A stretch of DNA of 25,199 nt from a virus. Made by a program: the position numbers and the translations under genes. The notes under the pieces are model-generated. The model saw only the letters and a program-made list of their open reading frames with translations. It had not been told where the DNA came from and did no database searches. The stretch spans positions 1-25,199 of IMG/VR virus record IMGVR_UViG_3300046733_000555, one strand, 5' to 3'. Shown here piece after piece: positions 1 through 25,199 of the stretch (position 1 is the stretch's first letter; every line of letters starts with the position of its first letter).

Positions 1-1123
1 TCTCTAAGATATTTCTATTTGCTACTTGACTTTGCATTGTAATTTCAGTAGGTATAGTTGCTGTAGGACCATTCATGTCAATCCTACTTGCTGTCTCTTT
101 GTGATGGTTACTTGTGATGTTTGATGTAAGTCCTTTTACTGACCATATATCTTTGGCTGTTTGGTGTATGCCGCCAACACTTGCTTCCATTTTTATACCT
201 TCTGCACCTGTGCTTTTGATATTAACTCCTTGGTCTGCTTGCATGTTAATATTTTGTTTTGAGTGGAAGTTTATATCTTCTTCTGCATGTACACTTACAT
301 TTTTAGCACTATACATGTCAATATTTCCTTCACTGTCAATTTCAATATATGCACTGCCTGTGCTATTGGAAACAAAAATAAAATCATTAGTATCATCCAT
401 TAGTATCTGAGCTCCGCTCATAGTCTTGATTCTAATATTTTGACTTCCGCTACCATCAGCGGCGCCATCATCCATTGTTAATACATGTCCGCCTGCTGTA
501 GTCATACCAAAAACTTTACTTGGAGATTCTCTCCTAGCTGTACTTTGACTGTGTCCACGTACAAGATCTCCTGCAAGTCCTTGTTGCTTTAACTTTGCAT
601 CATTAAAGCTATTCATAGGTCTAGTAGTTGAGTCCTGTCCGTCATTTGGGTTTTTTTCTAGTGTTGGACCAAAACTTGATTCTCCAGTATCTGGATCATA
701 TGCTTCAGTACTTGCATGTCCGCCCATCATGCTATTTCTGTCTTTGCTCATAAACGAGCCTAAATAAAAGCCTTCCTCTCGGCTACTACTAAATCCTACT
801 AATACTTCTGTACCAACTGCTGGAGGTTGTGGCCACATACCGTAACTACTAGCGGTACCTGAATCAGTTTTATAATCATCTTCAACATTTGGTAAATTAT
901 TAATACCAGCCATTGGAGAAACTAATGATATCATACGTGTTGCTTTTGATGTTGGGTTTCCAAATTCTGGTATACGAACTTCAATTCTACCCATCATCGT
1001 ACTATCATTATTTTTTACAACAACTGCTGGATACACTCCAGCAATGGTATTCACACCATCTCTACCGCCCTGCTGTACTCTGCCTGGCATGTTGTTTATG
1101 TTAGTGTTTCTATAACCGCTCAT
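1..1123 (-). CDS. gp5: Baseplate central spike protein, gp5-like (partial, C-terminus outside window)
   Basis: The frame is open from the ATG at 1123 to the window edge (about 374 residues). The N-terminal part, roughly residues 25-130, looks like the OB-fold of phage/T6SS spikes, with segments such as MMGRIEVRIPEFG, PQPPAVGTEVLVGFSSSREEGFYLGSF. From about residue 205 it runs through KVFGMTTAGGHVLTMDDG and QNIRIKTMSGAQILMDD into short repeats of the type NIDMYSAKNVSVHAEEDINF, the pattern of the trimeric beta-helix needle of T4 gp5 and VgrG. In T4 gp5 a lysozyme domain sits between OB-fold and helix. Only a linker of about 70 residues lies there in this protein, so the lysozyme is missing; a wall-hydrolase-like domain is instead found in the upstream hub gene. 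The start codon overlaps the stop of that gene (ATGA), so the two are translationally coupled. It would act at the tip of the tail tube. Confidence 0.8.
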   Translation of the reverse strand, partial: MSGYRNTNINNMPGRVQQGGRDGVNTIAGVYPAVVVKNNDSTMMGRIEVRIPEFGNPTSKATRMISLVSPMAGINNLPNVEDDYKTDSGTASSYGMWPQPPAVGTEVLVGFSSSREEGFYLGSFMSKDRNSMMGGHASTEAYDPDTGESSFGPTLEKNPNDGQDSTTRPMNSFNDAKLKQQGLAGDLVRGHSQSTARRESPSKVFGMTTAGGHVLTMDDGAADGSGSQNIRIKTMSGAQILMDDTNDFIFVSNSTGSAYIEIDSEGNIDMYSAKNVSVHAEEDINFHSKQNINMQADQGVNIKSTGAEGIKMEASVGGIHQTAKDIWSVKGLTSNITSNHHKETASRIDMNGPTATIPTEITMQSQVANRNILE

Positions 1124-3930
1124 CCAATATTCTCCAGTTTGTTTTTAACAATACTTGGTGTTGTTCTTGTATCTTTATATCCTTTTAGGATTTGTGTAAA
1201 TTGTCCTTGACTAAATTTACTTTCAATATCTGTAATTCTATATACTCCGCTACTAACAAGATCCATATCTGCTTTGCCTGAATATCCAGCTTCATACATT
1301 TCTTCTTTACCTAGGTAATTAATGAAAACAATCATTGTATCTGCATCTGCATATTCAATTAGCAAGTCTTGATCTCCTGCTATAACTGCACCCGGCGCAC
1401 CCATCCAAAATGGATCGCCAACTATTTCAAAACTAGCAGTCATAAAATCCATGTCTCTGCCAACAAGTGCCGCATCACGAACCGCATCCACTGTATCAAC
1501 ATTTCCATTTTTAATGTCTGACACTTGTTGTGCTGCACTACCTAAAGCAGCAAAGCCATAACTTGGTATTTGTATCGCCATGTCATCTTGATCAACTTTA
1601 ATGTCGCTTAAAAATCTACCAACTCTAACTTGTCCGATAGGTCCACTATTAACAATATCTCTTGGTGCTGATGTATTATTACTTACTACTCCTGCACCAG
1701 GGTGAACAACTCCAGATGGTTCTGCATATGTATTAGCTAGTCCTGGATCTCTAACATTAAAGAAATATGTATCAAATGTCAAGTCAAAATTAACTAGCTG
1801 TGTGTTCTCTCCGCTGTACAGGTATCTATACACTTTGCTAATTGGCAAGTCATCAAATCTTCCATTTTGGAATGTTGGATTTGTGGCTTGTTGTCTGGCA
1901 ATTTCCGGATCATTATTAATATTAGTATAAGTCCATTTAATCTCAACAATTAATTGTTCTGTTGCTTGTCTATTATTTGTTGCTGGGTCTACACCATCAC
2001 CAACTACTGTGTTTGTGTCAACATGTATATATGGAACTCTGTATCCTTGTTCACGATGCTCTGCTGCAAAACGTGCAAACTCAGGAACGTTAGCTGTTAT
2101 TAATCTTTCCAAAAATACTTTCATATTTGTATTATTACCAACAGTACCATCTCTTAGATTTGGATCTTCATTACTTGCACTGAGCATTGCAGCCATAGCT
2201 TGATCTTCAGTACTACTGAATGCGGCTTTGGGTAAATTAAACTCTTGTCCTGTTGCACTTGGCGCAAATATAATTTCCCATTGCTTAATAGGTTGAGCAG
2301 TGGCATTTGGTGGGATATCTGCAGGATCTCTACCACCATTCCTAATATCGTTTTCATGTTCATTTAATGCTGTCTGTAATGAGGATGCTAAACTCTCTAC
2401 ATTACCAACATCTGTATACTTAATATCAGTTACAACTGTAACATTAGCTTCTGCACTTTGTTTTGTATTGAAAGCCACAATATTATATCTACTACCGCTA
2501 GCATCAACATTGCCTTTCATTTCTCGTATTGTACAAGGATAGAAAAAACTCTTTCCTGGCCATTTTACTTCTACACCAGTGTCAGGATCTCTTCCTAAAA
2601 ATTCCAATTTAAGAACAAATAATGCACTTTGCAATCCCATTTGTCCATAAAAATTTGGTTGTAGTTTTACTAACCGATCCATAAATGTAAATCCATATGG
2701 CTCATACAAGTCAAATTGGAATGTTCCAACTGCACCTGTACCACCAACAAGTTTACTCAGCATTAACATATTTTCAATAGCAAAGGCAGTCTCAACACCG
2801 CTTTCAGCTATTACAACTGCATCACCTTGTCTAGTTACACTGTCGTCATTTTCTAATACTGTTGGTTGATTCCAAATATTTGACTTAACAAGATAAAATG
2901 TCCATTTGTATGTTGTTAGATCATTTTGAGTCATCCAATTTTCAACTACTACATCTGAATATGAACGCTCAACAGGATCAGGTCCTTCCACGATTGCGTC
3001 TTCGGCACCTGCATTAAATTGATCGGTAAATTCGTCTGCTAAATCAGGATCCTCTGCTCCAATGGTTTCTTCAACCTCATCGTCTGCATCTCCTGCACCA
3101 GCATTTTGTTCATCCCATGCCGCTTGCTCTGCGGCAAGTCTGTCTTGTATTTGTTTCTTTTCTGCTTCTAATATTGCTACTGATGATGCTGCACCTTGAA
3201 AGTTATAAGGATCGCCTTCTTCGTCTCCAGTTGGTCTACCAAAGTCTAAATCATCTACTCCTGCAACTTTAGCAGTGCCATCTGGATTATGTGTTGCTCC
3301 GAACTCTTCATCAAAAGCTGCTTGGTCTGCTGCTAATTCTCTTTGTGCATTTTGATAAATCAAATTGTTTTCTATTGCTTCATCAATTTGTGCTATTCTT
3401 TCTCTGTCACCATCTGACATTTCTGGTCTAGGAGAAGTTGGTACTCGTTGTGCGTTTGCTTGTGCAATCGCTTCTGCTGACGTAACTGTTCCGTTTTGCA
3501 TCCCAATACCAACAGCGTGGCTATCTTCAAAATAACTTTGCGCTCTAGCCCCACCTTCTTTTTGAGTCATATAGTCCATCATTTTAGCTTGTAATTCTGG
3601 ATTTCTAGATAAGTCAACTGGTTGATTAACACCAACGCCCATCGCATCTGCTACTTCTTGTGCATAACGCCCTGTGTCATTTTCGTTAGGAGGTGCCCAG
3701 CGATGAATAATTTTATTAACTGTGTTTGCATCAGTACCATCGCCTTGGTAATTTTGTAATAACCTAGCCATAGCTCTTGAGCCGTTTTCTGGTGTATCAA
3801 AGACAGCAAAGCCGCCAGAGTCTACGCCAGTTTGTCCTTGCCATGTAAAGTTAGGATTATTTCTGATGTTTCCTGGATTATTATTTCTTACGCTCCTTGG
3901 AGCCTGTCGTCGTCTGTCGCCTTGTGCCAT
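1120..3930 (-). CDS. Large baseplate hub protein with N-terminal murein-hydrolase-like domain
   Basis: A 936-residue protein in three parts. Residues about 14-150 carry RNNNPGNIRNN, FAVFDTPENGSRAMARLL and TVNKIIHRWAPPNENDTGRYA, the signature of the lysozyme/transglycosylase-like domain seen in phage virion proteins with an NNPGNIR motif. Residues about 165-325 are a low-complexity acidic, Ala/Glu-rich linker. The remainder, about 330-936, is a beta-rich structural region ending in DPFWMGAPGAVIAGDQDLLI and SGVYRITDIESKFSQGQFTQ, which resembles hub proteins of the gp27/gpD type. The location directly upstream of the gp5-like spike is where T4 keeps gp27 relative to gp5. I infer that this protein is the hub holding the spike and that it also carries the wall-cutting activity missing from the spike. 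The hub assignment rests on position and C-terminal style and is less sure than the hydrolase-like domain. The start is ATG; one base separates it from the upstream stop. Confidence 0.65.
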   Translation of the reverse strand: MAQGDRRRQAPRSVRNNNPGNIRNNPNFTWQGQTGVDSGGFAVFDTPENGSRAMARLLQNYQGDGTDANTVNKIIHRWAPPNENDTGRYAQEVADAMGVGVNQPVDLSRNPELQAKMMDYMTQKEGGARAQSYFEDSHAVGIGMQNGTVTSAEAIAQANAQRVPTSPRPEMSDGDRERIAQIDEAIENNLIYQNAQRELAADQAAFDEEFGATHNPDGTAKVAGVDDLDFGRPTGDEEGDPYNFQGAASSVAILEAEKKQIQDRLAAEQAAWDEQNAGAGDADDEVEETIGAEDPDLADEFTDQFNAGAEDAIVEGPDPVERSYSDVVVENWMTQNDLTTYKWTFYLVKSNIWNQPTVLENDDSVTRQGDAVVIAESGVETAFAIENMLMLSKLVGGTGAVGTFQFDLYEPYGFTFMDRLVKLQPNFYGQMGLQSALFVLKLEFLGRDPDTGVEVKWPGKSFFYPCTIREMKGNVDASGSRYNIVAFNTKQSAEANVTVVTDIKYTDVGNVESLASSLQTALNEHENDIRNGGRDPADIPPNATAQPIKQWEIIFAPSATGQEFNLPKAAFSSTEDQAMAAMLSASNEDPNLRDGTVGNNTNMKVFLERLITANVPEFARFAAEHREQGYRVPYIHVDTNTVVGDGVDPATNNRQATEQLIVEIKWTYTNINNDPEIARQQATNPTFQNGRFDDLPISKVYRYLYSGENTQLVNFDLTFDTYFFNVRDPGLANTYAEPSGVVHPGAGVVSNNTSAPRDIVNSGPIGQVRVGRFLSDIKVDQDDMAIQIPSYGFAALGSAAQQVSDIKNGNVDTVDAVRDAALVGRDMDFMTASFEIVGDPFWMGAPGAVIAGDQDLLIEYADADTMIVFINYLGKEEMYEAGYSGKADMDLVSSGVYRITDIESKFSQGQFTQILKGYKDTRTTPSIVKNKLENIG

Positions 3931-4818: not shown

Positions 4819-5442
4819 TTATTCCTGTCCCCCATTGCCTAGTGCTTGATCCAATAGCTGTACTGCTTTTGGTGCACCATTGCCGTACATTAATTGTGCA
4901 GCTTTTAATTTTTCTTCTTCACCCATGTTAGGCCATGCGGCTCTTAGTTCACTTGCGCTTTTTATACTCATGCCACCAAAGTTAAAGTTGATAGTTGGAC
5001 CGTATGCCATATAACCCATCTCGTCTGATGTTCGTGTATTTTTTCCTGTGTAAGTGCGTAAGTAGCCTGGCTCACCATTCTTTTTAGTTTGGTCTGGCAT
5101 AGGCGCTTCGCCCTTGTCTTTCACACTGCGTACAAATACTAGTGCAGTATTACTATCTAAAATATCTGCATAAGAACGCATGTTGAATGGTGATTTGACT
5201 TGTATAAATCTTTCAGCTGGAACGCCTGCCATTGATGCTAATTGCTTTTTAATATCAAAAGGGAATGGTCTCGTACTAACGTCTGATGTTGCCGCAACAT
5301 ATACGTTGCTTTGCCCAAACGTTTTAGACGCCCAATCATATAGACTCTTATGCCCAGGATGAAACGGATGAAATCCACCTGGCATAATTGCTATAACTCG
5401 ATTTGCTTTTGCTTCTGTTAATATTACTTCATCAATACGCAT
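4819..5442 (-). CDS. Cytidylyltransferase/NMNAT-like nucleotidyltransferase with a capsid-targeting-like N-terminus
   Basis: A 207-residue protein. Residues 22-31 are GGFHPFHPGH, the HxGH nucleotide-binding motif of the adenylyl/cytidylyltransferase superfamily. IKSASELR at 160-167 matches the second signature (ISSTxIR-like) of NMNAT- and PPAT-type enzymes. The family transfers a nucleotide from CTP or ATP to a phosphorylated acceptor; the substrate is not readable here. NAD metabolism is one possibility because phages often carry NMNAT-like enzymes. The first ten residues, MRIDEVILTE, are followed by Ala, giving L-T-E|A at position 10|11. This copies the layout of the T4 capsid-targeting peptide, which is cut by the prohead protease after Glu10. 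It is the first gene of the minus-strand baseplate operon, with an AGGAGA ribosome site at 5449-5454, six bases before the ATG. Confidence 0.75.
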   Translation of the reverse strand: MRIDEVILTEAKANRVIAIMPGGFHPFHPGHKSLYDWASKTFGQSNVYVAATSDVSTRPFPFDIKKQLASMAGVPAERFIQVKSPFNMRSYADILDSNTALVFVRSVKDKGEAPMPDQTKKNGEPGYLRTYTGKNTRTSDEMGYMAYGPTINFNFGGMSIKSASELRAAWPNMGEEEKLKAAQLMYGNGAPKAVQLLDQALGNGGQE

Positions 5443-10856: not shown

Positions 10857-11066
10857 GGATGATGCCTTCTGATCTTCTGCTCTTTTGTTAATAACTTCAA
10901 CAAAAAGCTGAATTGCAGGAACTGGCATATTCATTACATCTTCGTAACTTAAACTACCACCACTTGACAACATAACTTCAATATAGTTTTTTTCTCTATC
11001 ATCATGTTGCTTTTTGTAATTTTCAATAATTTGTACAATCTCTGACGGCTGATTAGTGGCAATCAA
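10845..11066 (-). CDS. Small protein coupled to gp26-like gene, possible tail-assembly factor
   Basis: A 73-residue protein with a TTG start overlapping the gp26 stop (TTGA). The C-terminal half, GGSLSYEDVMNMPVPAIQLFVEVINKRAEDQKASSRRR, has the 'slsyedv..mP...i..fve.i..R' look of small phage tail-assembly chaperones. That is a resemblance only. The N-terminal half is a charged helix (EIVQIIENYKKQHDDREKNYIEV). The start is uncertain: the only ribosome-like sequence (GCAGG) abuts the TTG, so translation most likely re-initiates after gp26. The next in-frame ATG would leave about 42 residues. Confidence 0.6.
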   Translation of the reverse strand: MIATNQPSEIVQIIENYKKQHDDREKNYIEVMLSSGGSLSYEDVMNMPVPAIQLFVEVINKRAEDQKASSRRR

Positions 11067-11908
11067 CCTGCGAAAAAATTTGACATATCAAGATCCACTT
11101 GTGCATCCCAACCATGTCCACATTCCTGACAACTTATTTTAAACATCTGATTGATACCGCTGTCGCTTAATTTCTCGACAGTTTCTTTGATCAGGTCATA
11201 ATCATTTGTAGTAATGTTTGCTAACCATTCTTTAATTGTATCGTGATCAAAAACTGGCTCTTCAAGGTCAGTATCATGATTAACTTCTTCAATACAGTTT
11301 GCAATTAGCTCAACAGTTAGGTTTGCTATTTCCACAAATGTTTTTCCAAATCTTTCAGTTTGTTCTTCTTCGGATAAGTCAGCAGAATCAGTTAATGCTT
11401 GAACCATCTTAGCTTGTTTAACTTGTTGTATCTGTAAAATAGTTCTATCTTTTAGACTGTATGGTTTAAGTGTAACCTTAAAGTCTCCTGATAGTGTTAC
11501 TACTCTGTCTACATCCTCAACAGATTTAGATTTAGCTAAAATTGTGTTTGCATCAAAAGCCATTTGGTTAATGTGCTTACATTGCGGACAATTAATATCA
11601 ACTTCTACCTTGTCACCATAACTTGCTTGGCGTATGCTTAATAAAATAGTAAGCAAATCGTTTACAGGAATTTGGTCTGGGTCTTGGATATCTGGTGCGC
11701 AACTTCTGATAAGAGTATTTGTCGCTTCTCCATTAAAAAGTGCATCGGGCGTCTTTGTAATAAGCTCGTCTCTTGCAGTCATAGGATAGATTGCAAGCTC
11801 GCCATCTACACTTAGTGTAGGCTTTGGATCGTAATATTGCCCTCCACTGGGTAAAGTTATATATAAAGCCGGTTTTCTATAGGCTTTAATGAGTGGATTG
11901 TTTGACAT
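11063..11908 (-). CDS. gp26: Baseplate hub protein, gp26-like (T4 baseplate family)
   Basis: A 281-residue protein. The N-terminal ITLPSGGQYYDPKP and the following ELAIYPMTARDELITKTPDALFNGEAT, LIRSCAPDI and ILLSIRQASYGD are typical of the T4 gp26 family in T4-like phages. Two Cys pairs, C107-x-x-C110 (INCPQCKH) and C260-x-x-C263 (ISCQECGHGW), far apart in sequence, probably make one zinc site. T4 gp26 is needed to build the baseplate hub. This protein is longer than T4 gp26 (208), with an extra helical, acidic middle (residues about 160-245). A GGAG ribosome site lies upstream of the ATG. It is divergent from the tape-measure operon and convergent with the 10411 gene. Confidence 0.8.
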   Translation of the reverse strand: MSNNPLIKAYRKPALYITLPSGGQYYDPKPTLSVDGELAIYPMTARDELITKTPDALFNGEATNTLIRSCAPDIQDPDQIPVNDLLTILLSIRQASYGDKVEVDINCPQCKHINQMAFDANTILAKSKSVEDVDRVVTLSGDFKVTLKPYSLKDRTILQIQQVKQAKMVQALTDSADLSEEEQTERFGKTFVEIANLTVELIANCIEEVNHDTDLEEPVFDHDTIKEWLANITTNDYDLIKETVEKLSDSGINQMFKISCQECGHGWDAQVDLDMSNFFAG

Positions 11909-11921
11909 AGTGTTTTCTCCA

Positions 11922-11929
11922 AATAAATA
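11922..11929 (+). promoter_or_regulatory. Late-promoter-like box for the tape-measure operon
   Basis: AATAAATA followed by C, seven of eight bases of the late consensus, 52 bases before the TTG start at 11982. It faces away from the opposing box at 11956-11963, so the two transcripts would overlap by a short stretch. Confidence 0.45.
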
Positions 11930-11955
11930 CTACTAATAGACTCTAGGTCTAACTT

Positions 11956-11963
11956 TATTTATC
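11956..11963 (-). promoter_or_regulatory. Late-promoter-like box for gp26
   Basis: Read on the minus strand it is GATAAATA, seven of eight bases of TATAAATA. The predicted start near 11950 gives a leader of about 40 bases before the gp26 ATG, with a GGAG ribosome site. Confidence 0.5.
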
Positions 11964-11981
11964 TATTAAGTGAGTAGTTAA

Positions 11982-14717
11982 TTGGACGAACAAGTAGTAA
12001 ACTTTATACATAGTCAATATCCGTGGGCTAGCGAGCAAACGGCACGTGATCTTGTAGCTATAACAGGTAGCGTAAACTATAACAATGCTATAAATCATTT
12101 AAGAAGTCTAGGTGTTAAATTAGAAAATACAGAAGATATTACAAAAAACCTATCTAAAAATGCTTCAAAGACTGTTAAAACTGTAGTTAGAACTAGCACA
12201 AAAATAAAAGATGCTATTAGAAATCAACAACGTGATATAGATCCGTTAGAAGCTACCACTGAGCTAATGAAGTCGGGTGCAGAAATAGGTGGCGAAGCTA
12301 GCGGTGCTTTATTAGGCATTGCTAGAAAGGTACCTGGGCTTGGAAAAGGAATGCAGTTATTTGGCTCAGCAACTGGTGCAACTGTTACAACAGCAACCGC
12401 AGTATTGGGAATGTATGGTAGTTTGATATCAGAACAAGAAAAAACAATGAGAGCCATGATTGACTTTGGTTTAGCTACTGCTGATTTACAAAACTATAAC
12501 ACTATGAGAACACAAGCAGCATTGACTGGTCAAAGTTTAATGGAGCAAGCACAGCATATCAGAGAAGCAAGTGGTATGTTAATTAATATAGAAAAGGATT
12601 ATTTCAGAGGCGCATATAATATGAGTAATATGCTAGCGGCTGTTGAGGCAGATTCTGCTCTATTAGGCGACTTTGGTTACAATGTTGAAGAACTAAGTGC
12701 TAGGTTTGTTGAAGAAGCAAACATTATGTATCGCAAAGGCGAACTACGAACTCTCGATTATCAAACACAAAGAAGAATATATGAAGGATTTATAGACAGT
12801 AGTGAAATGGCTATAGCATTAGCCAGTATTACTGGACAAGAAAGAAGTTCAATTCTTGAGAAGAGAAGAGAGCAACTTGAAGATGTTAATTTCCGTCTAG
12901 CACAACGCCAGAATGATCAATTTGTAGCTGAAAAATATGGTCAGGCGGCATTGCAGAACATCGAAGATGTGCAAGCATATCTTTTAACTACTGCATCAGA
13001 AGTTAGTCCAACACTTGCTCCGTTACTGCAAGATGCATTTGCTCGTGGTTTTTCAAATATACAATATAGTGATAATGCAGTTAATGCGGCTGGTGATGAA
13101 CTAGCATCTGTAATTAGTTTATTGCCTGCAGAGTCTCAACGAGTAGTATTTGATATAATAAAAAATAGTTTTACTGGACAAATTAGTTCAAATGAAATAC
13201 CAGACGCAATAGCTAGGATTGCACAAGAGTTTGAGAAGGCTCCTATATACAAAACAACTGATGCTATTACAACAAACTTTACTCAAATACAAGCTGAATC
13301 AGCAACAAGCGTGATGAGTGTTGAAAATGCAAGAACAGCTTCTTTTTCAAAGATAGTTCAACAATCTGCACCAGCCGCAGAAAGTGCTGACAACATTATT
13401 GACGGAATGGACGATATGAGAATAGCTATGAGAACAACTCTTGATACTATTACTCCTGGTTATTCCGCAGGTGCAACCGCAGTTAGTTTATTCAATGATG
13501 GTATATCAGTAGTGGGCGGATTATTTTCTGAATTATTTCCAAATCTGGAAAGTTTTGAAGACCAAGTAAAAAGAAGAGAAGAAGCTAAACGTAAACGTGA
13601 GGAAATGAAAGGCAGAAACAATCCTAGAAGAAGAAATCGAACAGGTCCTTCAGGTACTGGTGGCAATGATACTCAAACTGAAATTCCTGGATTAAATGAT
13701 TCATCGTCTACTATACCTATGAGTTTCCCTAATAATAGGCCTCCACTTCCTCCAATTAATGGTAATAGACCACCTAACCAAGCTGAACAGAATATGTTAA
13801 CTAAAGCTCAACTTGAAGCCAAGGAAAGAATGGGGACTATTACTGATGAGGAAGCAGCTCTACTTAAAGACCTTAGAGATAGAGAAGCTGAAGCATTACG
13901 CAATAGATTTAATATACCCAGTGATGATGTAGATTCTTCTACACCAGCTGATTCAGAACCAGAAACTGTATTGAACGGAAATGCAAGCCAAGCAGAATTT
14001 GTTGATCAACAACAATCTTCGTTAGCAAGAGTTAGAAATAGACCAATAAGTCCTGAACTTGGACAAGTGCTTGCAAACGCCGCCGCATCATTAAATATTC
14101 CTGGATTGCAGGTTGTAACTACTAGCGGTGGACAAATGTCAATGGCAGATTTCCAAGCCGCCACAGGAAATAAAAGACGTACAAGAGGGCGCAGTCCAAC
14201 TTATTATCTTAATAACCAAGCAGTTAGAAAAGGATCAACTAGACATGATGATGGTTTAGCGGCTGATTTAGAATTGCATCAAGATGGACAAAAACTATCA
14301 ATCAATCATCCTCATTTTATTAGATTTTTCGAAGCCGCATTTGCTTTGGGTGCCAAGGGTGGTAGTGCAGGGTATATGGGTAACTACAGAGCGCACATTG
14401 ATGTAATTGGTACCGATCATGGTGGTACACAAACATGGAGCAATCCAACGTCTGGCTTTACACAAGCACAACAAGCAGGCTTAAACATGGCATCTGGTGC
14501 TAGTGAAAATGAATATCAACAAAGATTAGAACAATTATATCCAGATCAACAAGCAAGTGTATTACCACAAGATAGTTCTTCTCCTGCGATAAGTACTAGT
14601 ACTGAAGATAATACTGCAACAGAAATAGCTGCACTAGAAGCTGAGGCTGCCGCTACTGCAAGTAGAATTGCAAGTAAAATTGAAAGTGAAAACCTAGGAG
14701 AAACTGCAATTGGCTGA
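11982..14717 (+). CDS. Tape-measure-like tail protein 1 with M15-type peptidase domain
   Basis: A 911-residue protein starting at TTG (no ATG fits; AAGTGAG upstream is a weak ribosome site). The N-terminal 550 residues are mostly helical, with a hydrophobic Gly/Ala/Thr segment near 105-146, as in tape-measure proteins that span the tube and can enter the host membrane. LLGDFG (227-232) and ITGQERSSIL (283-292) align with the next gene at a constant offset. Residues about 560-690 are low-complexity, rich in Pro, Asn, Arg and Ser. About 695-815 form a peptidase domain: GSTRHDDGLAADL with H755 and D762 at the H-x6-D spacing of M15 D,D-carboxypeptidases, and AHIDV with H805/D807 as the remaining metal or catalytic site. 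The rest is an Ala/Glu-rich helical tail. It probably sets tail length and cuts peptidoglycan during injection. Confidence 0.75.
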   Translation: MDEQVVNFIHSQYPWASEQTARDLVAITGSVNYNNAINHLRSLGVKLENTEDITKNLSKNASKTVKTVVRTSTKIKDAIRNQQRDIDPLEATTELMKSGAEIGGEASGALLGIARKVPGLGKGMQLFGSATGATVTTATAVLGMYGSLISEQEKTMRAMIDFGLATADLQNYNTMRTQAALTGQSLMEQAQHIREASGMLINIEKDYFRGAYNMSNMLAAVEADSALLGDFGYNVEELSARFVEEANIMYRKGELRTLDYQTQRRIYEGFIDSSEMAIALASITGQERSSILEKRREQLEDVNFRLAQRQNDQFVAEKYGQAALQNIEDVQAYLLTTASEVSPTLAPLLQDAFARGFSNIQYSDNAVNAAGDELASVISLLPAESQRVVFDIIKNSFTGQISSNEIPDAIARIAQEFEKAPIYKTTDAITTNFTQIQAESATSVMSVENARTASFSKIVQQSAPAAESADNIIDGMDDMRIAMRTTLDTITPGYSAGATAVSLFNDGISVVGGLFSELFPNLESFEDQVKRREEAKRKREEMKGRNNPRRRNRTGPSGTGGNDTQTEIPGLNDSSSTIPMSFPNNRPPLPPINGNRPPNQAEQNMLTKAQLEAKERMGTITDEEAALLKDLRDREAEALRNRFNIPSDDVDSSTPADSEPETVLNGNASQAEFVDQQQSSLARVRNRPISPELGQVLANAAASLNIPGLQVVTTSGGQMSMADFQAATGNKRRTRGRSPTYYLNNQAVRKGSTRHDDGLAADLELHQDGQKLSINHPHFIRFFEAAFALGAKGGSAGYMGNYRAHIDVIGTDHGGTQTWSNPTSGFTQAQQAGLNMASGASENEYQQRLEQLYPDQQASVLPQDSSSPAISTSTEDNTATEIAALEAEAAATASRIASKIESENLGETAIG

Positions 14718-17124
14718 TCAACATAACATACGATTACCTGATGGAACTCAAATTGCTGTTCCAGCGTGGGCTGGTGAAGTAACACTGAATGCAGTTAAAA
14801 TAAACATTCAGCGCATGGTTAATAATGAAATTGCACTAGTAAAGCAACTTACTAACTTAAACTTTAATACCGAGGGTATGGAAGAAGGTTTAGGCGATGT
14901 AAACAAAGCACTGGGTAATTTAGAAGATGATTTAAAAGAAAGAAGTGATCACTTAGAAAAATTTTCGGATGGTGTTAAAGATTTTGTAGACAAACTTGGT
15001 GACAGTGATAGACCTTTAAGTAGTATGATGAGAATGTTAAGTTCAGTAGCAGGCGGTGCTGGAAACTTAACAGGTGCATTATTAGGTGGAACTGGTGTAT
15101 TCAAAGGTTTGTCTGAAAAAATGACAGGTTATATGCCTGGGTTAAAATCAGCCGGCGCCGCCGCTGGTGCTCTTATAGGTTGGAATGTTGCTAAACTAGA
15201 ACAATTTAATGATATACAAAAAACAATTATTGATACTGGTGCCATTATGTACGACACCGAAGATAAGTTTAATGAATTTTTTAAACGTTCGTCTGATGTA
15301 GGTATTGAGTACGGGCGTTTTGTCGAAACAATTAAGAGTCACGGAACTGCAATGATGGCATTTGGATCAAATGTATCAAACGGTGCAGATGCCTTCTTAA
15401 CTAACTTTACACAACTATCAAGAAATGCAGACTATCTGGGTGACTTTGGTATGAGTCATGATGAGATGTTGGGAGCATATGCTGATGAATTGGAAATTAT
15501 GCGTTTAACTGGATTTGTGTCACGTAACATGGCAGACGCTCAAGAAAAAGCTGAAACAGGATTTACGCAATTAATGATGGAACAGACTGCATTAGCTAAT
15601 CTTACAGGTAGAAGTAGAAGTGAATTATTAGCCGCACGTGGTAGTTTCTTAAGTGACCCACGTGTTGCTTTGACTTTAAGATTTTTAGAATCAGCTGGTG
15701 ATTTCGAAAGAAAAGATATTGTTGATGATTTTGGACAACAGTTTAAATTAATGCAACCATATTTTGATGAAGCAGGAAGTTCATTAAATTCTGATCTAGA
15801 AGCTGCATACATTCAAGCTATAACAGACCATCGTAATGATATGGAAAATTTCCAACTTACTCCTTATTTAGAAGCAGAAACATTGGCGGCGTTAAATCAA
15901 ATTGCACCTGGTATGGTTACTGAAATGGAAAATGCAATGCGTACAGGTGATATGGAAAACTCACACAATGCTCTAATTGCAGCTATGGATGGAAATTTAA
16001 ATAAAGTAATGTTATCTACATCTGCAACAGGTGAAATAGGTAATACTATACGAGCAGGCCAAGCCGCGGCTGTAGCTATGATGGATCAATTAGGAACATT
16101 TGCATTAATGGATAGATCAGCATTTAATACTGCTATTAATAATAGTGCAGACGCAATGGCAGAATCTGGTACATTAACAACTGCATTTAACGATATGAGT
16201 ATTGCTGTTAAAAATGTACAAGATTTATTTACTTTTAATTTAGAAACAGGCGCAGATGTATTAGGTGCATTTAGTGGTGTTTTAAAAGAAGGTGCGCAAG
16301 ATATTAATTCATTTTTTAGTCAGCTTGGTATTATGGATAGTATTGGTATTGAAAAAGTAGCAGAAAGATTAGAAAGCGGAGACTTTACTGAGGCTGACCA
16401 AGTTGAAATGATGTATTATTTAATGAATCAGAACAATGATGCCTTGATAAGAGATGGCGGAATGGGTGCCTTGTTGGGATATTTTATGAACGGTGTTAAT
16501 ACCGTTGCAAAGCCATTAGATTCGATTACTGGATTAAGCACAAGCGGTACTGATGAAGGTGGATTTTTAACTTATGGTAACCAAGAGCTACTTAGAGAAT
16601 ATAGGGAAATGCAAAATAGAGAAGTCGGCGGTAATGTTACTGCTGGACAATCATATATTGTTGGTGAGAGCGGCCCAGAAAGATTTACTCCTAACCAAAA
16701 CGGAAGTATTGATGCAAATGCAGATCACGGTGAAATAACTCCATTACCCGCATCAACCGCTGGATCATCATTAGCTGGATCAGAATTAGTACGTTTAATG
16801 AGGCAAATGGTATCATTAAAAGAAGAAGCATCTAATCTTGCATTAGGTCCAGCAGAGTCTGATTATCTTAACTTATTAAATGGCATAAGTATAATGGACA
16901 ACACCTCAACAGGTACACCAGAAACACAGATGCCTGATATATCACAACCAGTAAATGTTACTGCAAATATACAACAGGGTGCAGAAAAGTCAACAAATGA
17001 GCTAGAAAGTATTCGACAAATGAAAGTTTCTAGTTTAGAATCAATGAAACAGTTAGAACGAGCCGTGGATGGTCTGATTGCTCAACGTAGAAGAGAGCAT
17101 GCGAACTCGGCAGCAAACGGCTAA
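14710..17124 (+). CDS. Tape-measure-like tail protein 2, paralogue of the preceding gene
   Basis: An 804-residue protein with TTG start inside the end of the previous gene (8-base overlap) and AGGAG eight bases upstream. It is largely helical, with Gly/Ala-rich hydrophobic stretches near 110-150. YLGDFG (242-247) and LTGRSRSELL (298-307) correspond to segments of the preceding protein at the same +15 offset, which shows common ancestry. Near the C-terminus, GGNVTAGQSYIVGESGPE (640-657) is the motif found at the end of many phage tape-measure proteins. It then has a coiled-coil-like end (STNELESIRQMKVSSLESMKQLERAV). No peptidase motif is seen. The stop TAA is part of the box that may start portal transcription. 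Whether it or its neighbour is the actual ruler, or both together, cannot be told from sequence. Confidence 0.75.
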   Translation: MADQHNIRLPDGTQIAVPAWAGEVTLNAVKINIQRMVNNEIALVKQLTNLNFNTEGMEEGLGDVNKALGNLEDDLKERSDHLEKFSDGVKDFVDKLGDSDRPLSSMMRMLSSVAGGAGNLTGALLGGTGVFKGLSEKMTGYMPGLKSAGAAAGALIGWNVAKLEQFNDIQKTIIDTGAIMYDTEDKFNEFFKRSSDVGIEYGRFVETIKSHGTAMMAFGSNVSNGADAFLTNFTQLSRNADYLGDFGMSHDEMLGAYADELEIMRLTGFVSRNMADAQEKAETGFTQLMMEQTALANLTGRSRSELLAARGSFLSDPRVALTLRFLESAGDFERKDIVDDFGQQFKLMQPYFDEAGSSLNSDLEAAYIQAITDHRNDMENFQLTPYLEAETLAALNQIAPGMVTEMENAMRTGDMENSHNALIAAMDGNLNKVMLSTSATGEIGNTIRAGQAAAVAMMDQLGTFALMDRSAFNTAINNSADAMAESGTLTTAFNDMSIAVKNVQDLFTFNLETGADVLGAFSGVLKEGAQDINSFFSQLGIMDSIGIEKVAERLESGDFTEADQVEMMYYLMNQNNDALIRDGGMGALLGYFMNGVNTVAKPLDSITGLSTSGTDEGGFLTYGNQELLREYREMQNREVGGNVTAGQSYIVGESGPERFTPNQNGSIDANADHGEITPLPASTAGSSLAGSELVRLMRQMVSLKEEASNLALGPAESDYLNLLNGISIMDNTSTGTPETQMPDISQPVNVTANIQQGAEKSTNELESIRQMKVSSLESMKQLERAVDGLIAQRRREHANSAANG

Positions 17125-17145: not shown

Positions 17146-18810
17146 ATGGCAGGTTGGAAGAAACATTTTACAAGAGTAGACGTACCTGGTAACACAGGAA
17201 ACGCAAGAACAAGCAGATGGCAAAGTTGGCTACCTGAGGTATACAGTGGTCAACCAAATCGTGTTGAGCGTTATACTCAGTATGATCAAATGGATCAGGA
17301 TAGCGAAATTAATGCCGCTCTTGATACTATCGCTGAATTTTGTACTCAAGAAGACGATGGTTCAAAAACTCCATTTGTTATCAAGTATAAAGAAGATCCA
17401 ACTGAAAGTGAATCAGGTGCATTAGACACTGCTCTAAATCAGTGGAATAATATTAATGATTTTGATAGACGTATTTTCGGTATTTTTAGATCAGCAATTA
17501 AATATGGAGATCAATTTTTTATTAGAGATCCAGAAACATATATCTTATATTGGGTAAATCCAGAAGATGTTATGAAAGCAATTGTTAACGAAAGTAATGG
17601 TAAAGAAATTGATCAATATATTCTTAAAAATGTGATGATTAATTTACAAGACAAAGTTGTAGTTGATACTAAAAATTTACAAGACACAAGTACAACAATG
17701 ACTACACCAAGTAATAAGTTCGGTAACAATGCTGGAAATATTACTGGCAATTTAGGCAATCAAGAATTTGCAGTTGATGCAAGTAACATTGTTCATGTAA
17801 GTTTAAGTGACGGATTAAACAATGCTTGGCCATTTGGACAAAGTATTCTTGATAGTGTATTTAAAGTATACAAACAAAAAGAATTATTAGAAGATAGTAT
17901 TATTATCTATCGTGTACAACGTGCACCAGAACGCAGAGTATTTTATATTGATGTTGGTAACATGCCAGCACACAAAGCAATGGCATTTATTGAACGTACA
18001 AAAAACGAAGTACACCAAACACGTATTCCAAATAAAAGTGGCGGTGGCACAAATGTAATGGATGCCGCATATAATCCACTATCAATTATGGAAGATTATT
18101 TCTTTGCACAAACTGCTGAAGGCAGAGGTAGTAAAGTTGAAGTTCTGCCTGGCGGTGATAATCTTGGAGAGATTGACGATTTAAGATATTTTAATAATAA
18201 GCTAATGCGTGGTTTGCGAGTACCTAGTAGCTATCTACCAACCGGTAGCGATGACGGAACAGCCACTTATCAAGACGGTAGGGTTGGTACTGCACTAATT
18301 CAAGAATATAGATTTGCAAAATATTGTGAGCGTTTACAAAATACAATGCAAACACATTTTGATAAAGAATTTAAAATGTTTTTAAAGCACAGAGGAATTA
18401 ATATTCCAAGTAACTTGTTTAGTATACAACTTACTGAATCACAAAACTTTGCAAGCTACAGAGAAATGGAACTTGACTCACAGCGAGTTACAATGTTTGG
18501 TGGAGTAGAAGGCGTACAATACTTGAGTAGACGCTTTATACTTAAAAAATATCTTGGTCTTACTGAAGACGAGATTGTAGAAAATGAAATTAATTGGAGA
18601 GAAGAGAATACAGATTCTTCTTTACAAAACAATGCTAAGAGAGATCTTGGTGGTGTAGGTATTAGAACTGGTGATATTGAAGGTTTTGAACCTACTGATG
18701 TAGATGCAGAAAATGATGCAGATACAGATATGGGAGGCACAGATGTGGACAGCCCAGTAGGTGGTCCGGCTTCAAGTGATGCTGGTGGAGGAGAAGGCAA
18801 TGAGATTTAA
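17146..18810 (+). CDS. gp20: Portal vertex protein gp20
   Basis: A 554-residue protein, close to T4 gp20 (524). The family is recognised from RVERYTQYDQMDQDSEINAALDTIAEFCTQ near the start, IHVSLSDGLNN-like wording around residue 215, and the long conserved middle RVQRAPERRVFYIDVGNMPA, HQTRIPN, DAAYNPLSIMEDYFF, GSKVEVLPGGDNLGEIDDL and GLRVPSSYLP. Twelve copies form the ring through which DNA is packaged and to which the neck and tail attach; it also starts prohead assembly. The C-terminal 55 residues are Asp/Gly/Ser-rich. It opens the head operon directly after the tape-measure genes. The next gene starts 11 bases before its stop. Confidence 0.95.
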   Translation: MAGWKKHFTRVDVPGNTGNARTSRWQSWLPEVYSGQPNRVERYTQYDQMDQDSEINAALDTIAEFCTQEDDGSKTPFVIKYKEDPTESESGALDTALNQWNNINDFDRRIFGIFRSAIKYGDQFFIRDPETYILYWVNPEDVMKAIVNESNGKEIDQYILKNVMINLQDKVVVDTKNLQDTSTTMTTPSNKFGNNAGNITGNLGNQEFAVDASNIVHVSLSDGLNNAWPFGQSILDSVFKVYKQKELLEDSIIIYRVQRAPERRVFYIDVGNMPAHKAMAFIERTKNEVHQTRIPNKSGGGTNVMDAAYNPLSIMEDYFFAQTAEGRGSKVEVLPGGDNLGEIDDLRYFNNKLMRGLRVPSSYLPTGSDDGTATYQDGRVGTALIQEYRFAKYCERLQNTMQTHFDKEFKMFLKHRGINIPSNLFSIQLTESQNFASYREMELDSQRVTMFGGVEGVQYLSRRFILKKYLGLTEDEIVENEINWREENTDSSLQNNAKRDLGGVGIRTGDIEGFEPTDVDAENDADTDMGGTDVDSPVGGPASSDAGGGEGNEI

Positions 18811-18994
18811 TGAAATTGCACAAGATGCTGAGGATGATGAATTCAATAAATGGGATGTAGATGATACTCGCAGACCTAAAATGACGTTAAGACATCTTAA
18901 TAAAATGAGAAAAAGACGTGAATCAGCCAAAGCCGAGCATGAAAGAATGACTCAAGGATACAAGGTAATGTATTCTGCTCCGGCTCCAGAGTAA
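18800..18994 (+). CDS. Small basic-helical protein between portal and prohead core genes
   Basis: A 64-residue protein. The ATG at 18800 is chosen over an upstream GTG because a strong GGAGGAGAAGG ribosome site (18787-18797 region) lies just before it. It overlaps the gp20 end by 11 bases. MRFNEIAQDAEDDEFNKWD is acidic; MTLRHLNKMRKRRESAKAEHERM is a basic helix. Small genes occupy this location between gp20 and the prohead core genes in T4-like phages (T4 gp67 sits here), so a role in prohead assembly is reasonable, but I do not recognise the family with certainty. It is followed by a terminator. Confidence 0.7.
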   Translation: MRFNEIAQDAEDDEFNKWDVDDTRRPKMTLRHLNKMRKRRESAKAEHERMTQGYKVMYSAPAPE

Positions 18995-23081: not shown

Positions 23082-24035
23082 ATGGAACTACTCACACTAT
23101 GGATGATAGTGGGCTTTTTATTCGCGGCCTATGCAGTCATCGCAAATGATTCAGTACAAACATTAGGTACTTGGATTGCATCAAACAACGAAAAATTTCA
23201 TTGGAGAACAATGTGGGCAGCCGCTTCGGCTGTTTTATTATATACACTCTGGTATGGATGGTATATGAACGGAGGCGATATTAGTTATGGTCGTCTAAAC
23301 AAAATCCCCTTTCAAGAAATACAATGGTATCATGCAATGGCACCAGGATTACTATTAATACTTACAAGGATAGGAGTACCAGTTAGTACTTCTTTTTTAG
23401 TATTAAGTGCATTCGCTAGTACATTTGTACTAGAAAAAATGCTTATGAAATCAATGATGGGATATGCAGTAGCCGCAGTAGCCGCTTATGCAATTTGGAT
23501 TGTAGTAAGCAAATTACTAGATGAAGCAAAACCAGTCAAAGAAGAACATAAAAATTATTGGCGCATCGGACAATGGATAACAACAGGCTTCCTGTGGTTT
23601 ACTTGGTTGTCACACGACATGGCAAATATTGCTGTATTTTTACCACGTGAAATTCCATGGGACTTAATGATTTTAGTTAGTCTAATATTTGTGGTTGGAT
23701 TATACTTTATGTTCCGTGAAGGCGGCGGCAAAATTCAAAATATTGTTATTGAAAAGCATAATACTCGTTATGTTCGTAGTGCTACGATTATTGATCTAGT
23801 ATACTTTTTGATTTTGTATTTCTTTAAAGAACTTAATGATATTCCAATGTCAACAACCTGGGTGTTTGTAGGACTACTATGTGGACGTGAACTTGCTATG
23901 GCAACAATGACAGGCAAGCACAAGTTTAAGACGGTGTTTCCATTAGTAACCAAAGACTTCTTTAAGATGATGATAGGCTTAGGCGCATCAGTTGGAGTAG
24001 TATTGATGATACATTACGTTATCAACCCAGCTTAA
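23082..24035 (+). CDS. PiT-type (PHO4 family) inorganic phosphate permease-like membrane protein
   Basis: A 317-residue membrane protein with about eight to ten hydrophobic segments. It shows both halves of the inverted-repeat signature of PiT phosphate transporters. In the first half ANDSVQTLGT (21-30) corresponds to the GANDxxNxxGT motif and GVPVSTS (98-104) to the PVSTTH motif; in the second half SHDMAN (177-182) corresponds to GANDVAN, and DIPMSTTW (253-260) to the second PxSTTH. PiT proteins carry phosphate into the cell together with Na+ or H+. At 317 residues it is shorter than PitA of E. coli (499), with a small central loop. AAKGGAG-like AAGGAG precedes the ATG; a perfect late promoter and a leader hairpin lie upstream. 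I infer a role in phosphate supply to the infected cell. Altered motif residues leave transport of another oxyanion possible. Confidence 0.85.
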   Translation: MELLTLWMIVGFLFAAYAVIANDSVQTLGTWIASNNEKFHWRTMWAAASAVLLYTLWYGWYMNGGDISYGRLNKIPFQEIQWYHAMAPGLLLILTRIGVPVSTSFLVLSAFASTFVLEKMLMKSMMGYAVAAVAAYAIWIVVSKLLDEAKPVKEEHKNYWRIGQWITTGFLWFTWLSHDMANIAVFLPREIPWDLMILVSLIFVVGLYFMFREGGGKIQNIVIEKHNTRYVRSATIIDLVYFLILYFFKELNDIPMSTTWVFVGLLCGRELAMATMTGKHKFKTVFPLVTKDFFKMMIGLGASVGVVLMIHYVINPA

Positions 24036-24107: not shown

Positions 24108-25199
24108 ATGGCTAAAAGAGAAGAAGACTATTCTATTGACAAAGCCCGTCAAATGAGAACTAGTCGTACAGCAAACAATATGAATACGTTTGAGCGTGAT
24201 CAAAGTGTTAATACTGATGTATCTACAATGAACACGCCTGCCCTATTCAGCAAAACATTAGATCATGACAGTACTACTTTGTTACCATCAGAAGCAAATG
24301 TTGTAAAACTAGCACTGGCAATGGAACGTGGTACAAGAAATGATTTAGAAAATGTTCAATTATCACCAAACGCAACACGTAAGTTAGCAAACCCACTAGG
24401 TGCATTTATCTGTGAAGTAATGGGTTGTGACGCTTATGGATTTACTATGCCAGTACCACCAACATTAGATAGTGTTGCCGGCGCAGGTGAAATGGTTGAA
24501 GTTTACGAACAAAATATCCAACGTGATATTTCTTTTGACGAATTAAATTTTGGTGGCGCAAATACTGCGGCTGATCGTGCAGTAACAAATTTAAATGCAT
24601 TTGGTTCAGAATATAAAGGCCCAGTAAATTCAGTAAGCGGTGCATTAACACGTGCAGAATTATTTCGTGGTGTAGCACCTGGATGTCTTACTGGTCCATA
24701 TGTATCACAATTTTTACTACATGATTTTAAAATGGGCGCACACACAATTTCACAAAAATACGATGTACATACTGGTGTATACGGAAATACATCAACAAAC
24801 TTTAAAAGTATTGCTGATGGCGGAGTACCAGTAGCACAAGGTGCAAATGAAGCAACAGCTCAATATATTTGGAACGGTAAAGGATTAGGAACACTTGTTC
24901 ATGGTGATTTTATTTACCAACAATTCTATTATGCGGCAGCAATGCTAGCACATGGTGGTACAAGGCACACAGCATACTCTGATAATGATCCATCAAACAG
25001 CGGCGCATTCTTAACTAATGGTGGTCCAGCGTTTGTTGCTCCAGCAGTAGCGGCAGTATCATCACATGCACTATCAGCCTCATGGGTTCACAAATGGAGA
25101 CATCACTGTAAACTACGTCCAGAAACAATGGCGGCTCGAATTGTTACTGGTATATCTGGCGCAACCACACAGTATCATGATTCAGCACTAACAACAAAT
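24108..25199 (+). CDS. Vanadium-dependent haloperoxidase-like protein (partial, C-terminus outside window)
   Basis: 364 codons are open to the window edge. The wording is that of the algal/bacterial vanadium haloperoxidase family: ELFRGVAPGCLTGPYVSQFL (184-203), HTISQKYDV (212-220), a segment GTLVHGDFIYQQFYYAAAML (261-280), and WVHKWRHHCKLRPETMAARI (326-345). In the last, K329 and R337 are eight residues apart, the spacing of two vanadate-binding residues, Lys398 and Arg406, of Corallina bromoperoxidase. The RPSGH-type motif that would complete the site lies downstream of the window. The fold is shared with PAP2 acid phosphatases, so a phosphatase activity is possible. The first 95 residues are a polar lead without a signal peptide. 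Start: ATG at 24108 with GAAGGAG seven bases upstream. Family assignment is fairly sure, the reaction is not. Confidence 0.75.
   Translation, partial: MAKREEDYSIDKARQMRTSRTANNMNTFERDQSVNTDVSTMNTPALFSKTLDHDSTTLLPSEANVVKLALAMERGTRNDLENVQLSPNATRKLANPLGAFICEVMGCDAYGFTMPVPPTLDSVAGAGEMVEVYEQNIQRDISFDELNFGGANTAADRAVTNLNAFGSEYKGPVNSVSGALTRAELFRGVAPGCLTGPYVSQFLLHDFKMGAHTISQKYDVHTGVYGNTSTNFKSIADGGVPVAQGANEATAQYIWNGKGLGTLVHGDFIYQQFYYAAAMLAHGGTRHTAYSDNDPSNSGAFLTNGGPAFVAPAVAAVSSHALSASWVHKWRHHCKLRPETMAARIVTGISGATTQYHDSALTTN

What the first reader, a model, noticed from the sequence alone, without database searches (positions are those of the whole stretch)
11982..17124. Two overlapping paralogous tape-measure-like genes
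The 911- and 804-residue proteins share GDFG and TG-x-x-RS segments at the same +15 offset, both start with TTG and overlap by eight bases. They have diverged at the ends: one carries a peptidase, the other the VGESGPE motif of tape-measure C-termini. A duplicated ruler suggests a mixed or two-part tape measure, or one copy turned into an injected enzyme carrier.
Basis: partly seen in the sequence, partly recalled or inferred. Interest (0 to 1): 0.55.

Follow-up and report, generated by a model that had tools for sequence, protein, structure and literature searches.

The report
Tandem tape-measure genes in jumbo phages
A group of uncultured giant phages carries two, and sometimes three, side-by-side copies of the gene for the protein ruler that sets tail length; the copies stay matched in length and the longer ones carry different cell-wall-cutting enzymes, which suggests a mixed ruler built from different chains.

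Summary
P1 (11982-14717, 911 aa) and P2 (14710-17124, 804 aa) are true paralogs: 49.7 bits against at most 32.0 in 2,500 shuffled or reversed controls, and 485 colinear profile columns. They fill the gp26-to-portal slot of a T4-like phage, where PA5oct, Atu_ph07, Phosso and GAP32 carry one gene. Position, sequence and fold point to tape-measure proteins.

The duplication is fixed in a clade. In a gp26-based scan, 27 of 27 close loci with a complete slot have two (24) or three (3) copies; 41 of 41 more distant ones have one large gene there. An unrelated lineage tripled its own. Both copies are under purifying selection, keep cores of constant length and co-vary in total length (r 0.93; 0.80 on phylogenetic contrasts, driven by few large ones). 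In long members, peptidase and glycan-type enzymes sit on different copies.

Best reading (0.55): the paralogs lie side by side in one tail as a hetero-oligomeric ruler. An end-to-end ruler or a pure enzyme carrier fits worse. Co-assembly is inferred, not shown. My literature searches found no description of tandem tape-measure paralogs.

The parts
11063..11908 (-). gp26-like baseplate hub gene, divergent neighbour that marks the left end of the slot
   Evidence: Pfam T4_baseplate PF12322 E 3.1e-25; PHROG baseplate hub 2e-28
11982..14717 (+). P1, first tape-measure paralog, 911 aa, TTG start
   Evidence: paralog of P2; best BFVD structural match an 845-aa Atu_ph07 protein, E 2.3e-9, low TM-score 0.27
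12018..12047 (+). P1 N-terminal motif YPWASEQTAR, residues 13-22
   Evidence: related motif in P2 and in some single-copy genes such as PA5oct VPGWAREETL
11982..13472 (+). P1 conserved core, residues 1-497
   Evidence: core end 497-515 in 31 of 31 P1; all-helical in the model, confident from about residue 160
14049..14405 (+). P1 LAS (M15-type) peptidase-like domain, about residues 690-808
   Evidence: H-x-x-G-x-A-x-D at 755, H-x-D at 805; aligned with weak Pfam M15_3 members L091 and L127; the only PDB hit is the L-Ala-D-Glu peptidase 2vo9, E 0.73, not significant
14607..14711 (+). P1 C-terminal helix, residues 876-910
   Evidence: AlphaFold2 model
14696..14700 (+). AGGAG, ribosome-binding-like site for P2, inside P1
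   Evidence: sequence; in 37 distinct phages the junctions run from 26 bases of overlap to a 15-base gap, most within 11
14710..17124 (+). P2, second tape-measure paralog, 804 aa, TTG start, next to the portal as single-copy tape measures are
   Evidence: tree; best BFVD match an 845-aa Atu_ph07 protein, E 1.3e-8, low TM-score 0.32, several named tape measures below it
14761..14790 (+). P2 N-terminal motif PAWAGEVTLN, residues 18-27
   Evidence: 37 of 37 P2-type proteins have W[AVS]x[ED] in the first 60 residues
14710..16251 (+). P2 conserved core, residues 1-514
   Evidence: core end 514-524 in 31 of 31 P2; confident all-helical fold about 180-500
16660..16680 (+). VGESGPE motif, residues 651-657
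   Evidence: the stretch 637-676 scores in PHROG tape-measure family phrog_1538, E 0.00024
16957..17115 (+). P2 C-terminal long helix, residues 750-802
   Evidence: AlphaFold2 model, low confidence there
17146..18810 (+). portal protein gp20, right end of the slot
   Evidence: Pfam Portal_T4 7.1e-106

Best explanation
P1 and P2 are paralogous tape-measure proteins, most simply from a tandem duplication in the ancestor of a clade of T4-like jumbo-type phages. Shown: homology, position, one gene in the slot outside the clade, retention, purifying selection, constant cores, co-varying lengths, different enzyme cargo in long members. Inferred: both chains lie side by side in the lumen of the same tail tube, N-termini towards the collar and C-termini in the baseplate hub, as a hetero-oligomeric ruler in place of the homotrimer known from solved systems. 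P2 keeps the ancestral role and place next to the portal. P1 is the chain on the longer branch and more often carries a peptidoglycan-cutting domain, which would be delivered when the ruler leaves the tube. In some relatives P1 duplicated again, giving three chains: typically one with a peptidase, one with a glycan-type enzyme, one without.
For: Paralogy. Slot occupied by one gene in PA5oct (virion protein, ESI-MS/MS note in its record), Atu_ph07, Phosso, GAP32. Same top structural match for both models; core helices correspond at about +15 (compared by eye). gp26 scan, not selected on tape measures: 24 two-copy, 3 three-copy, 0 one-copy among 27 loci with gp26 >= 53% and a complete slot; 41 of 41 with gp26 <= 40% have one large gene there. 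P1-type one group (SH-aLRT 100), P2-type one group (99), largely mirrored subtrees; a single clade of all copies is not rejected (p-AU 0.546; lnL 2.4 higher than the free tree). Core ends 503 +/- 4 (P1) and 520 +/- 3 (P2), n = 31; total lengths r 0.93; contrasts r 0.80, 29 contrasts, 0 of 20,000 permutations as high; mean length difference 48 aa against 145 with partners shuffled. dN/dS 0.20-0.48 in 9 two-gene pairs and 0.15-0.24 in 2 three-gene pairs, every copy. N-terminal W motif in 40 of 43 P1-type and 37 of 37 P2-type; the other three keep PW with other flanks. Tape measures with solved structure are trimers: diffocin, section 8 read (PMC10996793); JBD30, passages (PMC11445458).
Against: No proof that both proteins are in the same virion or touch. 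The sign of the length contrasts is only 17 same, 9 opposite of 29, so a few large contrasts drive the correlation; r falls to 0.67 without the top three. The co-varying part is C-terminal and in long members includes enzyme domains, not only ruler. The constant core may be a folded domain rather than the measuring part. The C-terminal coil signal is weak: 12 of 37 first-gene and 18 of 37 last-gene C-termini pass p < 0.05, internal control 5 of 36. The free tree put P1 outside P2 plus 12 near single-copy genes (SH-aLRT 89), which leaves an older duplication with losses, or acquisition, open. On the portal tree five two-gene phages fall among the three-gene ones (92), so loss of a copy or portal exchange is possible. 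phmmer did not list P1 or P2 against the isolates' genes; only BLASTP did, on a nine-sequence set. The motif counts are biased because the patterns used that motif.
Confidence: 0.55

Rival explanations
1. P2 alone is the ruler; P1 has become a separate virion or ejection protein that carries a cell-wall enzyme, packed in the head or hub.
For: P1-type copies carry most enzyme domains: Pfam enzyme hits at E 0.001 in 10 of 43 P1-type against 2 of 37 P2-type. P1 is on the longer branch.
Against: 22 of 31 two-gene phages have two short copies without a Pfam enzyme hit, yet keep both. P1 keeps the N-terminal motif, a core of constant length and a near-equal rate within the clade (median distance ratio 1.06). 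P2 carries the VanY-like domain in L017 and L163.
Confidence: 0.2
2. Alternative rulers: each paralog forms its own homo-oligomer and the phage makes two kinds of tail.
For: Either copy looks able to work alone: both keep N-terminal motif, core and a predicted C-terminal helix.
Against: Lengths are nearly equal within a phage (ratio 0.92-1.25, median difference 37 aa, n = 31), so two tail classes would hardly differ; both copies are present in every complete locus of the clade that I saw.
Confidence: 0.1
3. Two-part ruler: P1 and P2 are stacked end to end and their lengths add.
Against: Neither copy has lost an end or part of its core; lengths correlate positively. Each alone is as long as single genes in the slot of relatives (607 to 1651 aa). 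PA5oct has one 798-aa protein and a 136 nm tail (abstract of PMC3936114 as listed).
Confidence: 0.05
4. P1 was acquired from another jumbo phage, or is an older duplicate lost elsewhere, rather than duplicated inside this clade.
For: The free tree places P1 outside P2 plus 12 near single-copy genes, SH-aLRT 89.
Against: A tree holding all copies together is 2.4 lnL better and not rejected; no single-copy lineage in the tree is nested with P1. It would not change the co-assembly question, so this rival is not exclusive of the best reading.
Confidence: 0.25

Closest known systems
Single-copy tape-measure-slot gene of jumbo T4-like phages (Pseudomonas phage PA5oct gp335, Agrobacterium phage Atu_ph07 gp197, Sinorhizobium phage Phosso, Cronobacter phage GAP32_244)
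   Same: Same slot between gp26-like hub and portal; weak BLASTP similarity; Atu_ph07 845-aa protein is the top structural match; PA5oct shares the N-terminal W-A-x-E-x-T-L motif
   Different: One gene per phage there; two here, three in some relatives; enzymes divided between copies in long members
Homotrimeric tape measures of diffocin and JBD30, and the trimeric C-termini of T5 and 80-alpha
   Same: Long helical protein, predicted globular helical stretch, C-terminal helix; functional analogue
   Different: One chain forming a homotrimer there; two or three different chains are predicted here
Tape measures fused to cell-wall hydrolases (TM4, T5 pb2, phage P1 Sit, phiCbK gp95)
   Same: Enzyme domain within or near the end of a tape measure (passages of PMC3556154 and PMC9024508)
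   Different: There one chain carries the enzyme; here peptidase and glycan-type domains sit on different paralogs

Membership tests
Tape-measure protein of tailed phages | Gene in the place of the tape-measure candidate of relatives | tested here: met
   gp26-P1-P2-portal; one large gene in the same slot in four named isolates; three Erwinia phage records name relatives of the GAP32 gene putative tape measure
Tape-measure protein of tailed phages | Homology to recognised tape measures | tested here: met
   P2 phrog_1538 E 0.00024 over a short stretch; Foldseek to proteins named tape measure, E <= 0.001 but low TM-scores; P1 has no tape-measure family hit itself and is tied in through P2 and Atu_ph07
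Tape-measure protein of tailed phages | Mostly alpha-helical, length in proportion to tail length | tested here: inconclusive
   Models are largely helical (mean pLDDT 61 and 65); no tail length of a phage in this clade was available to me
Tape-measure protein of tailed phages | Present in the tail lumen; length change alters tail length | not testable with these tools
   Needs virions; no match to P1 or P2 at E 1e-5 in 50,697 phage records
Homotrimeric tape measure | Three copies of one chain | not testable with these tools
   No multimer prediction or virion data
M15/LAS peptidase (P1 C-terminal domain) | H-x-x-G-x-[AS]-x-D and downstream H-x-D zinc motifs (motif recalled) | tested here: met
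   Invariant H76, G79, D83 and H126 in a six-sequence alignment that includes weak Pfam M15_3 members; one of the six, L093, lacks the last D
M15/LAS peptidase (P1 C-terminal domain) | Pfam hit | tested here: not met
   Window P1 has no hit at 0.001; so described as LAS-type by motif, not filed in a Pfam family

The most novel reading that the evidence does not exclude
The tape measure has become a defined heterotrimer. In two-gene phages it is two P1 chains plus one P2; when P1 duplicated again the trimer became one of each (a:b:c), with a peptidase on a, a glycan-type enzyme on b and none on c. A second, unrelated lineage reached three equal-length paralogs on its own, as expected if the number three comes from a trimeric ruler. 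The tail would then deliver a fixed set of complementary cell-wall cutters per virion.
Probability: 0.3. Interest if true: 0.82.

Novelty: new variant of a known kind. Interest (0 to 1): 0.63.

Why it matters
In the papers I saw, the tape measure is one gene and, where solved, a trimer of one chain; the diffocin authors state that no full-length structure had been reported before theirs of 2024 (PMC10996793, section 8 read). A natural series with one, two and three paralogs in the same slot gives a direct way to ask how many chains a ruler has, whether they are parallel, and how length is set, by counting proteins per tail and measuring tails. It also suggests how a phage can fit different cell-wall enzymes into one tube: put each on its own ruler strand.

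Tried and rejected
Isolate relatives of P1 and P2: no match in the phages collection at E 1e-5. Single-sequence scans of IMG/VR found only near copies of the window. A genome-contig scan for P2 relatives found none. Foldseek of the P1 model against PDB gave nothing at E 0.001; the P2 model was not run against PDB. phmmer of the P1 C-terminal part against PDB: nothing up to E 1. I first took core ends from all HMM stretches; some reached the C-terminus through a second match and spoiled the core correlation (r -0.12 core, 0.53 tail), so one search uses only stretches that reach the end of the model before residue 620. In one search four loci seemed to have no large gene; one search showed one each, overlapping gp26 by more than my 60-base margin. 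Assembly duplication artefact: rejected, because the window copies are about 23% identical and the pair recurs in many contigs. Decayed second copy: rejected by dN/dS (several dS above 1 are rough). Further copies elsewhere: none outside the tandem in 11 contigs of 50-222 kb searched with both profiles; these are not complete genomes, so more copies are not excluded. Chance similarity from helical composition: rejected by shuffles.

Limits: A1/A2 patterns used the W motif, so motif counts are biased; the gp26 and portal scans were not selected on tape measures. Most single genes in the distant slots are called tape measures by position: only a minority reach E 0.001 with my two profiles. Length statistics use the 31 two-gene phages, not five further two-gene loci seen later (L215 695/734, L216 779/834, L237 973/904, L241 1051/903, L245 1012/1016); contrasts use the 30 with a portal in the tree. 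Trees are quick searches without bootstrap. The PHROG scan of P1-type proteins showed 25 of 35 families and does not name members, so PHROG enzyme hits in short copies are not excluded. Identity of the BFVD Atu_ph07 entry with the syntenic gene rests on organism and length (845 aa), not on an accession check.
Full report
WHAT IS THERE. The window is a 25 kb virus record, a fragment of a T4-like myovirus. Its portal is about 53% identical to that of Pseudomonas phage PA5oct and its kin, the top isolate matches, and the ORF layout follows PA5oct: hub and baseplate genes on the minus strand, then by position the late sigma factor and SbcD- and SbcC-like genes, gp26-like hub on the minus strand, the two genes of the finding, portal, protease, major capsid protein. 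P1 and P2 overlap by 8 bases, start with TTG, and P2 has AGGAG nine bases upstream inside P1. In 37 distinct phages (31 with two and 6 with three genes) the junctions run from 26 bases of overlap to a 15-base gap.

ARE THEY PARALOGS. Yes. BLASTP E 5e-10 over 306 aa; 49.7 bits against at most 32.0 over 2,500 shuffled or reversed controls; hhalign of six P1 against six P2 sequences E 2.9e-24 over 485 columns, from the N-terminal motif to the end of the core. The two AlphaFold2 models are moderate (mean pLDDT 65 for P1 and 61 for P2) but confident in the core, where helices correspond at about +15, for example P1 169-181, 260-284, 288-299, 345-358 and P2 184-196, 274-299, 303-314, 359-373. This helix map was read from the two outputs by eye; no superposition was run.

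WHAT FAMILY. In PA5oct, Atu_ph07, Phosso and GAP32 the same slot holds one gene of 798, 845, 832 and 720 aa; it is annotated as structural in PA5oct (mass spectrometry noted in the record) and GAP32, hypothetical in the other two. Vibrio phage 2.275.O has a different layout there, with a GAP32-like gene on the minus strand. BLASTP on this small set links P1 with Atu_ph07 (E 8e-9) and Phosso (1e-4) and P2 with GAP32 (1e-4); phmmer listed none of these. The best viral structural match of both models is an 845-aa Atu_ph07 protein (E 2.3e-9 and 1.3e-8; TM-scores only 0.27 and 0.32), with proteins named tape measure further down both lists. Three Erwinia phage records name relatives of the GAP32 gene putative tape measure. 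PA5oct has a tail of 136 x 19 nm (abstract of PMC3936114 as listed); 798 aa at 1.5 A per residue give 120 nm, and at 1.70 A, from diffocin (1388 A; last residue named 817), 136 nm. This arithmetic is mine.

HOW WIDESPREAD. Among 80 loci found by portal, the five with portal above 65% and a complete slot all have two tape-measure genes; I count 40 complete slots at lower portal identity in the list, each with one large ORF, and one locus, L065, whose gp26 lay outside the fetched stretch, with three. A scan by gp26 gave 80 loci: 27 of 27 with gp26 at least 53% identical and a complete slot have two (24) or three (3), and 41 of 41 with gp26 at most 40% have one large ORF (37, four corrected). Twelve loci had no portal in view and were not counted. 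Many loci are near-identical contigs, and most of the distant single genes are tape-measure candidates by position only. Profiles of the first 12 proteins found 107 loci with gp26 and at least two complete copies, 37 after removing near copies (90% identity of the last copy): 31 with two, 6 with three.

HISTORY. On a tree of 102 cores the P1-type proteins form one group (SH-aLRT 100) and the P2-type another (99); within each, largely the same phages group together. P2 falls with 12 single genes of nearer phages. Holding all copies together gives a likelihood 2.4 higher and p-AU 0.546, so one duplication at the base of the clade is compatible and not proven. In the three-gene phages the first two genes form sister groups inside P1 (89; each 99): a second duplication of P1. 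The portal tree separates multi-copy from seven single-copy phages but puts five two-gene phages among the three-gene ones (92), so a later loss or an exchange of the portal cannot be excluded.

A SECOND ORIGIN. One lineage outside the clade (portal 54.5%, gp26 32-33%) has three tandem genes of 1228, 1179 and 1257 aa, or 1222, 1187 and 1251 aa in L299, in the same gp26-to-portal slot; copies two and three are about 50% identical over 967 aa and copy one about 47% to copy two. This is an independent triplication, seen in two distinct phages plus near copies.

CONSTRAINT. Cores end at residue 503 +/- 4 (P1) and 520 +/- 3 (P2) in 31 phages; what follows varies from 125 to 746 and from 140 to 634 residues and co-varies (total r 0.93; on 29 contrasts r 0.80, 0 of 20,000 permutations as high, but 17 same-sign against 9 opposite, and 0.67 without the three largest). 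Partners differ by a mean of 48 residues, shuffled partners by 145. P1 and P2 distances correlate at 0.93, and at 0.77 after removing the portal's, over 435 non-independent pairs, with a median ratio of 1.06; dN/dS lies between 0.15 and 0.48 in every copy of 11 close pairs, though several dS are above 1 and rough.

CARGO. Three-gene phages: gene a has a peptidase in five of six (VanY in L108, L109; M15_3 in L127 and L134 below the Pfam cut-off; LAS motif only in L093; none found in L131). Gene b has a glycan-type enzyme in six of six (SLT in L108, L109; GH19 in L127, L134; PHROG families, some named endolysin, in L093, L131). In gene c none was found. Two-gene phages with long copies, nine: P1 peptidase in window, L090, L011 by motif and L091 by a weak Pfam hit; P1 GH19 in L155 and L163; P1 phrog_30077 in L017, L152 and L158, a family of formally unknown function that I take as lysozyme-like because it co-occurs with endolysin families in L093 and L131; P2 VanY, below cut-off but with the motif, in L017 and L163; no enzyme found on the other P2. 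In none of these 15 phages did I find the same class on two copies. In the 22 two-gene phages with short copies no Pfam enzyme was found. In the window a lysozyme-like domain sits on the hub-region protein 1120-3930 (phrog_873, 7e-47), so peptidase and glycan enzyme are again on different proteins.

MECHANISM. The diffocin tape measure is a trimer with N-termini at the collar and C-termini on the spike; JBD30 is described as a trimer with C-termini in the baseplate core. A six-fold look is reported for A-1(L) and Pam3, so other copy numbers remain possible. Two chains that both keep the N-terminal motif, a core of fixed length and a predicted C-terminal helix, stay matched in total length, and are kept together in each complete locus of the clade that I saw, fit parallel chains of one ruler. 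That the copy which duplicated again was P1 would fit a 2:1 trimer turning into 1:1:1; this is my inference. Enzyme carriage alone cannot explain retention because most pairs have no enzyme that I could find.

NOVELTY. Searches of open-access papers for two, second, multiple, duplicated or paralogous tape measures found no description of tandem tape-measure paralogs. I opened passages of PMC3556154, PMC3271669, PMC9022992, PMC2147016, PMC11445458, PMC10457771, PMC10966104 and PMC9024508, passages and section 8 of PMC10996793, and judged the rest from the listings. Subscription papers and preprints outside the library were not searched. Enzyme-bearing tape measures and single-copy rulers are known; a clade-wide series of one, two and three rulers seems new.

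Noticed in passing
window 24108-25199 (+, runs off the window): Partial gene similar to vanadium-dependent bromoperoxidases (PDB 5aa6, E 2.1e-18). A 68% identical longer gene is in relative L017 at 17350-18948. No match in the phages collection at E 1e-5, and no paper held all of haloperoxidase, phage genome and vanadium.
   Followed up: partly
window 23082-24035 (+): Protein with a weak match to the PHO4 phosphate transporter family (E 0.0071, below cut-off), between the capsid gene and the haloperoxidase; a 94% identical stretch of 282 aa in L142.
   Followed up: partly
window 1120-3930 (-): 936-aa hub-region protein with an N-terminal lysozyme-like domain (phrog_873 endolysin 7.2e-47); the gene in that place in PA5oct is shorter (2025 bases).
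   Followed up: no
window 4819-5442 (-): 207-aa protein with a PGGFHPFHPGHK stretch that recalls nucleotidyltransferase (HxGH) motifs, in the place of a PA5oct virion structural protein; weak relatives in other loci. Motif assignment is from memory.
   Followed up: no
L297 2716-13774 and L299 1306-12352: Independent tandem triplication of tape-measure-slot genes in another lineage.
   Followed up: partly
L088 1504-6459: Very long single gene in the tape-measure slot, 1651 aa.
   Followed up: no
window 11900-11981: Divergent region between gp26 and P1 with an AATAAATA stretch and a TTAAGTGAGTAGTTAATT block just before P1; similar blocks lie upstream of P1 in several relatives. Could be a late promoter; not tested.
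   Followed up: no
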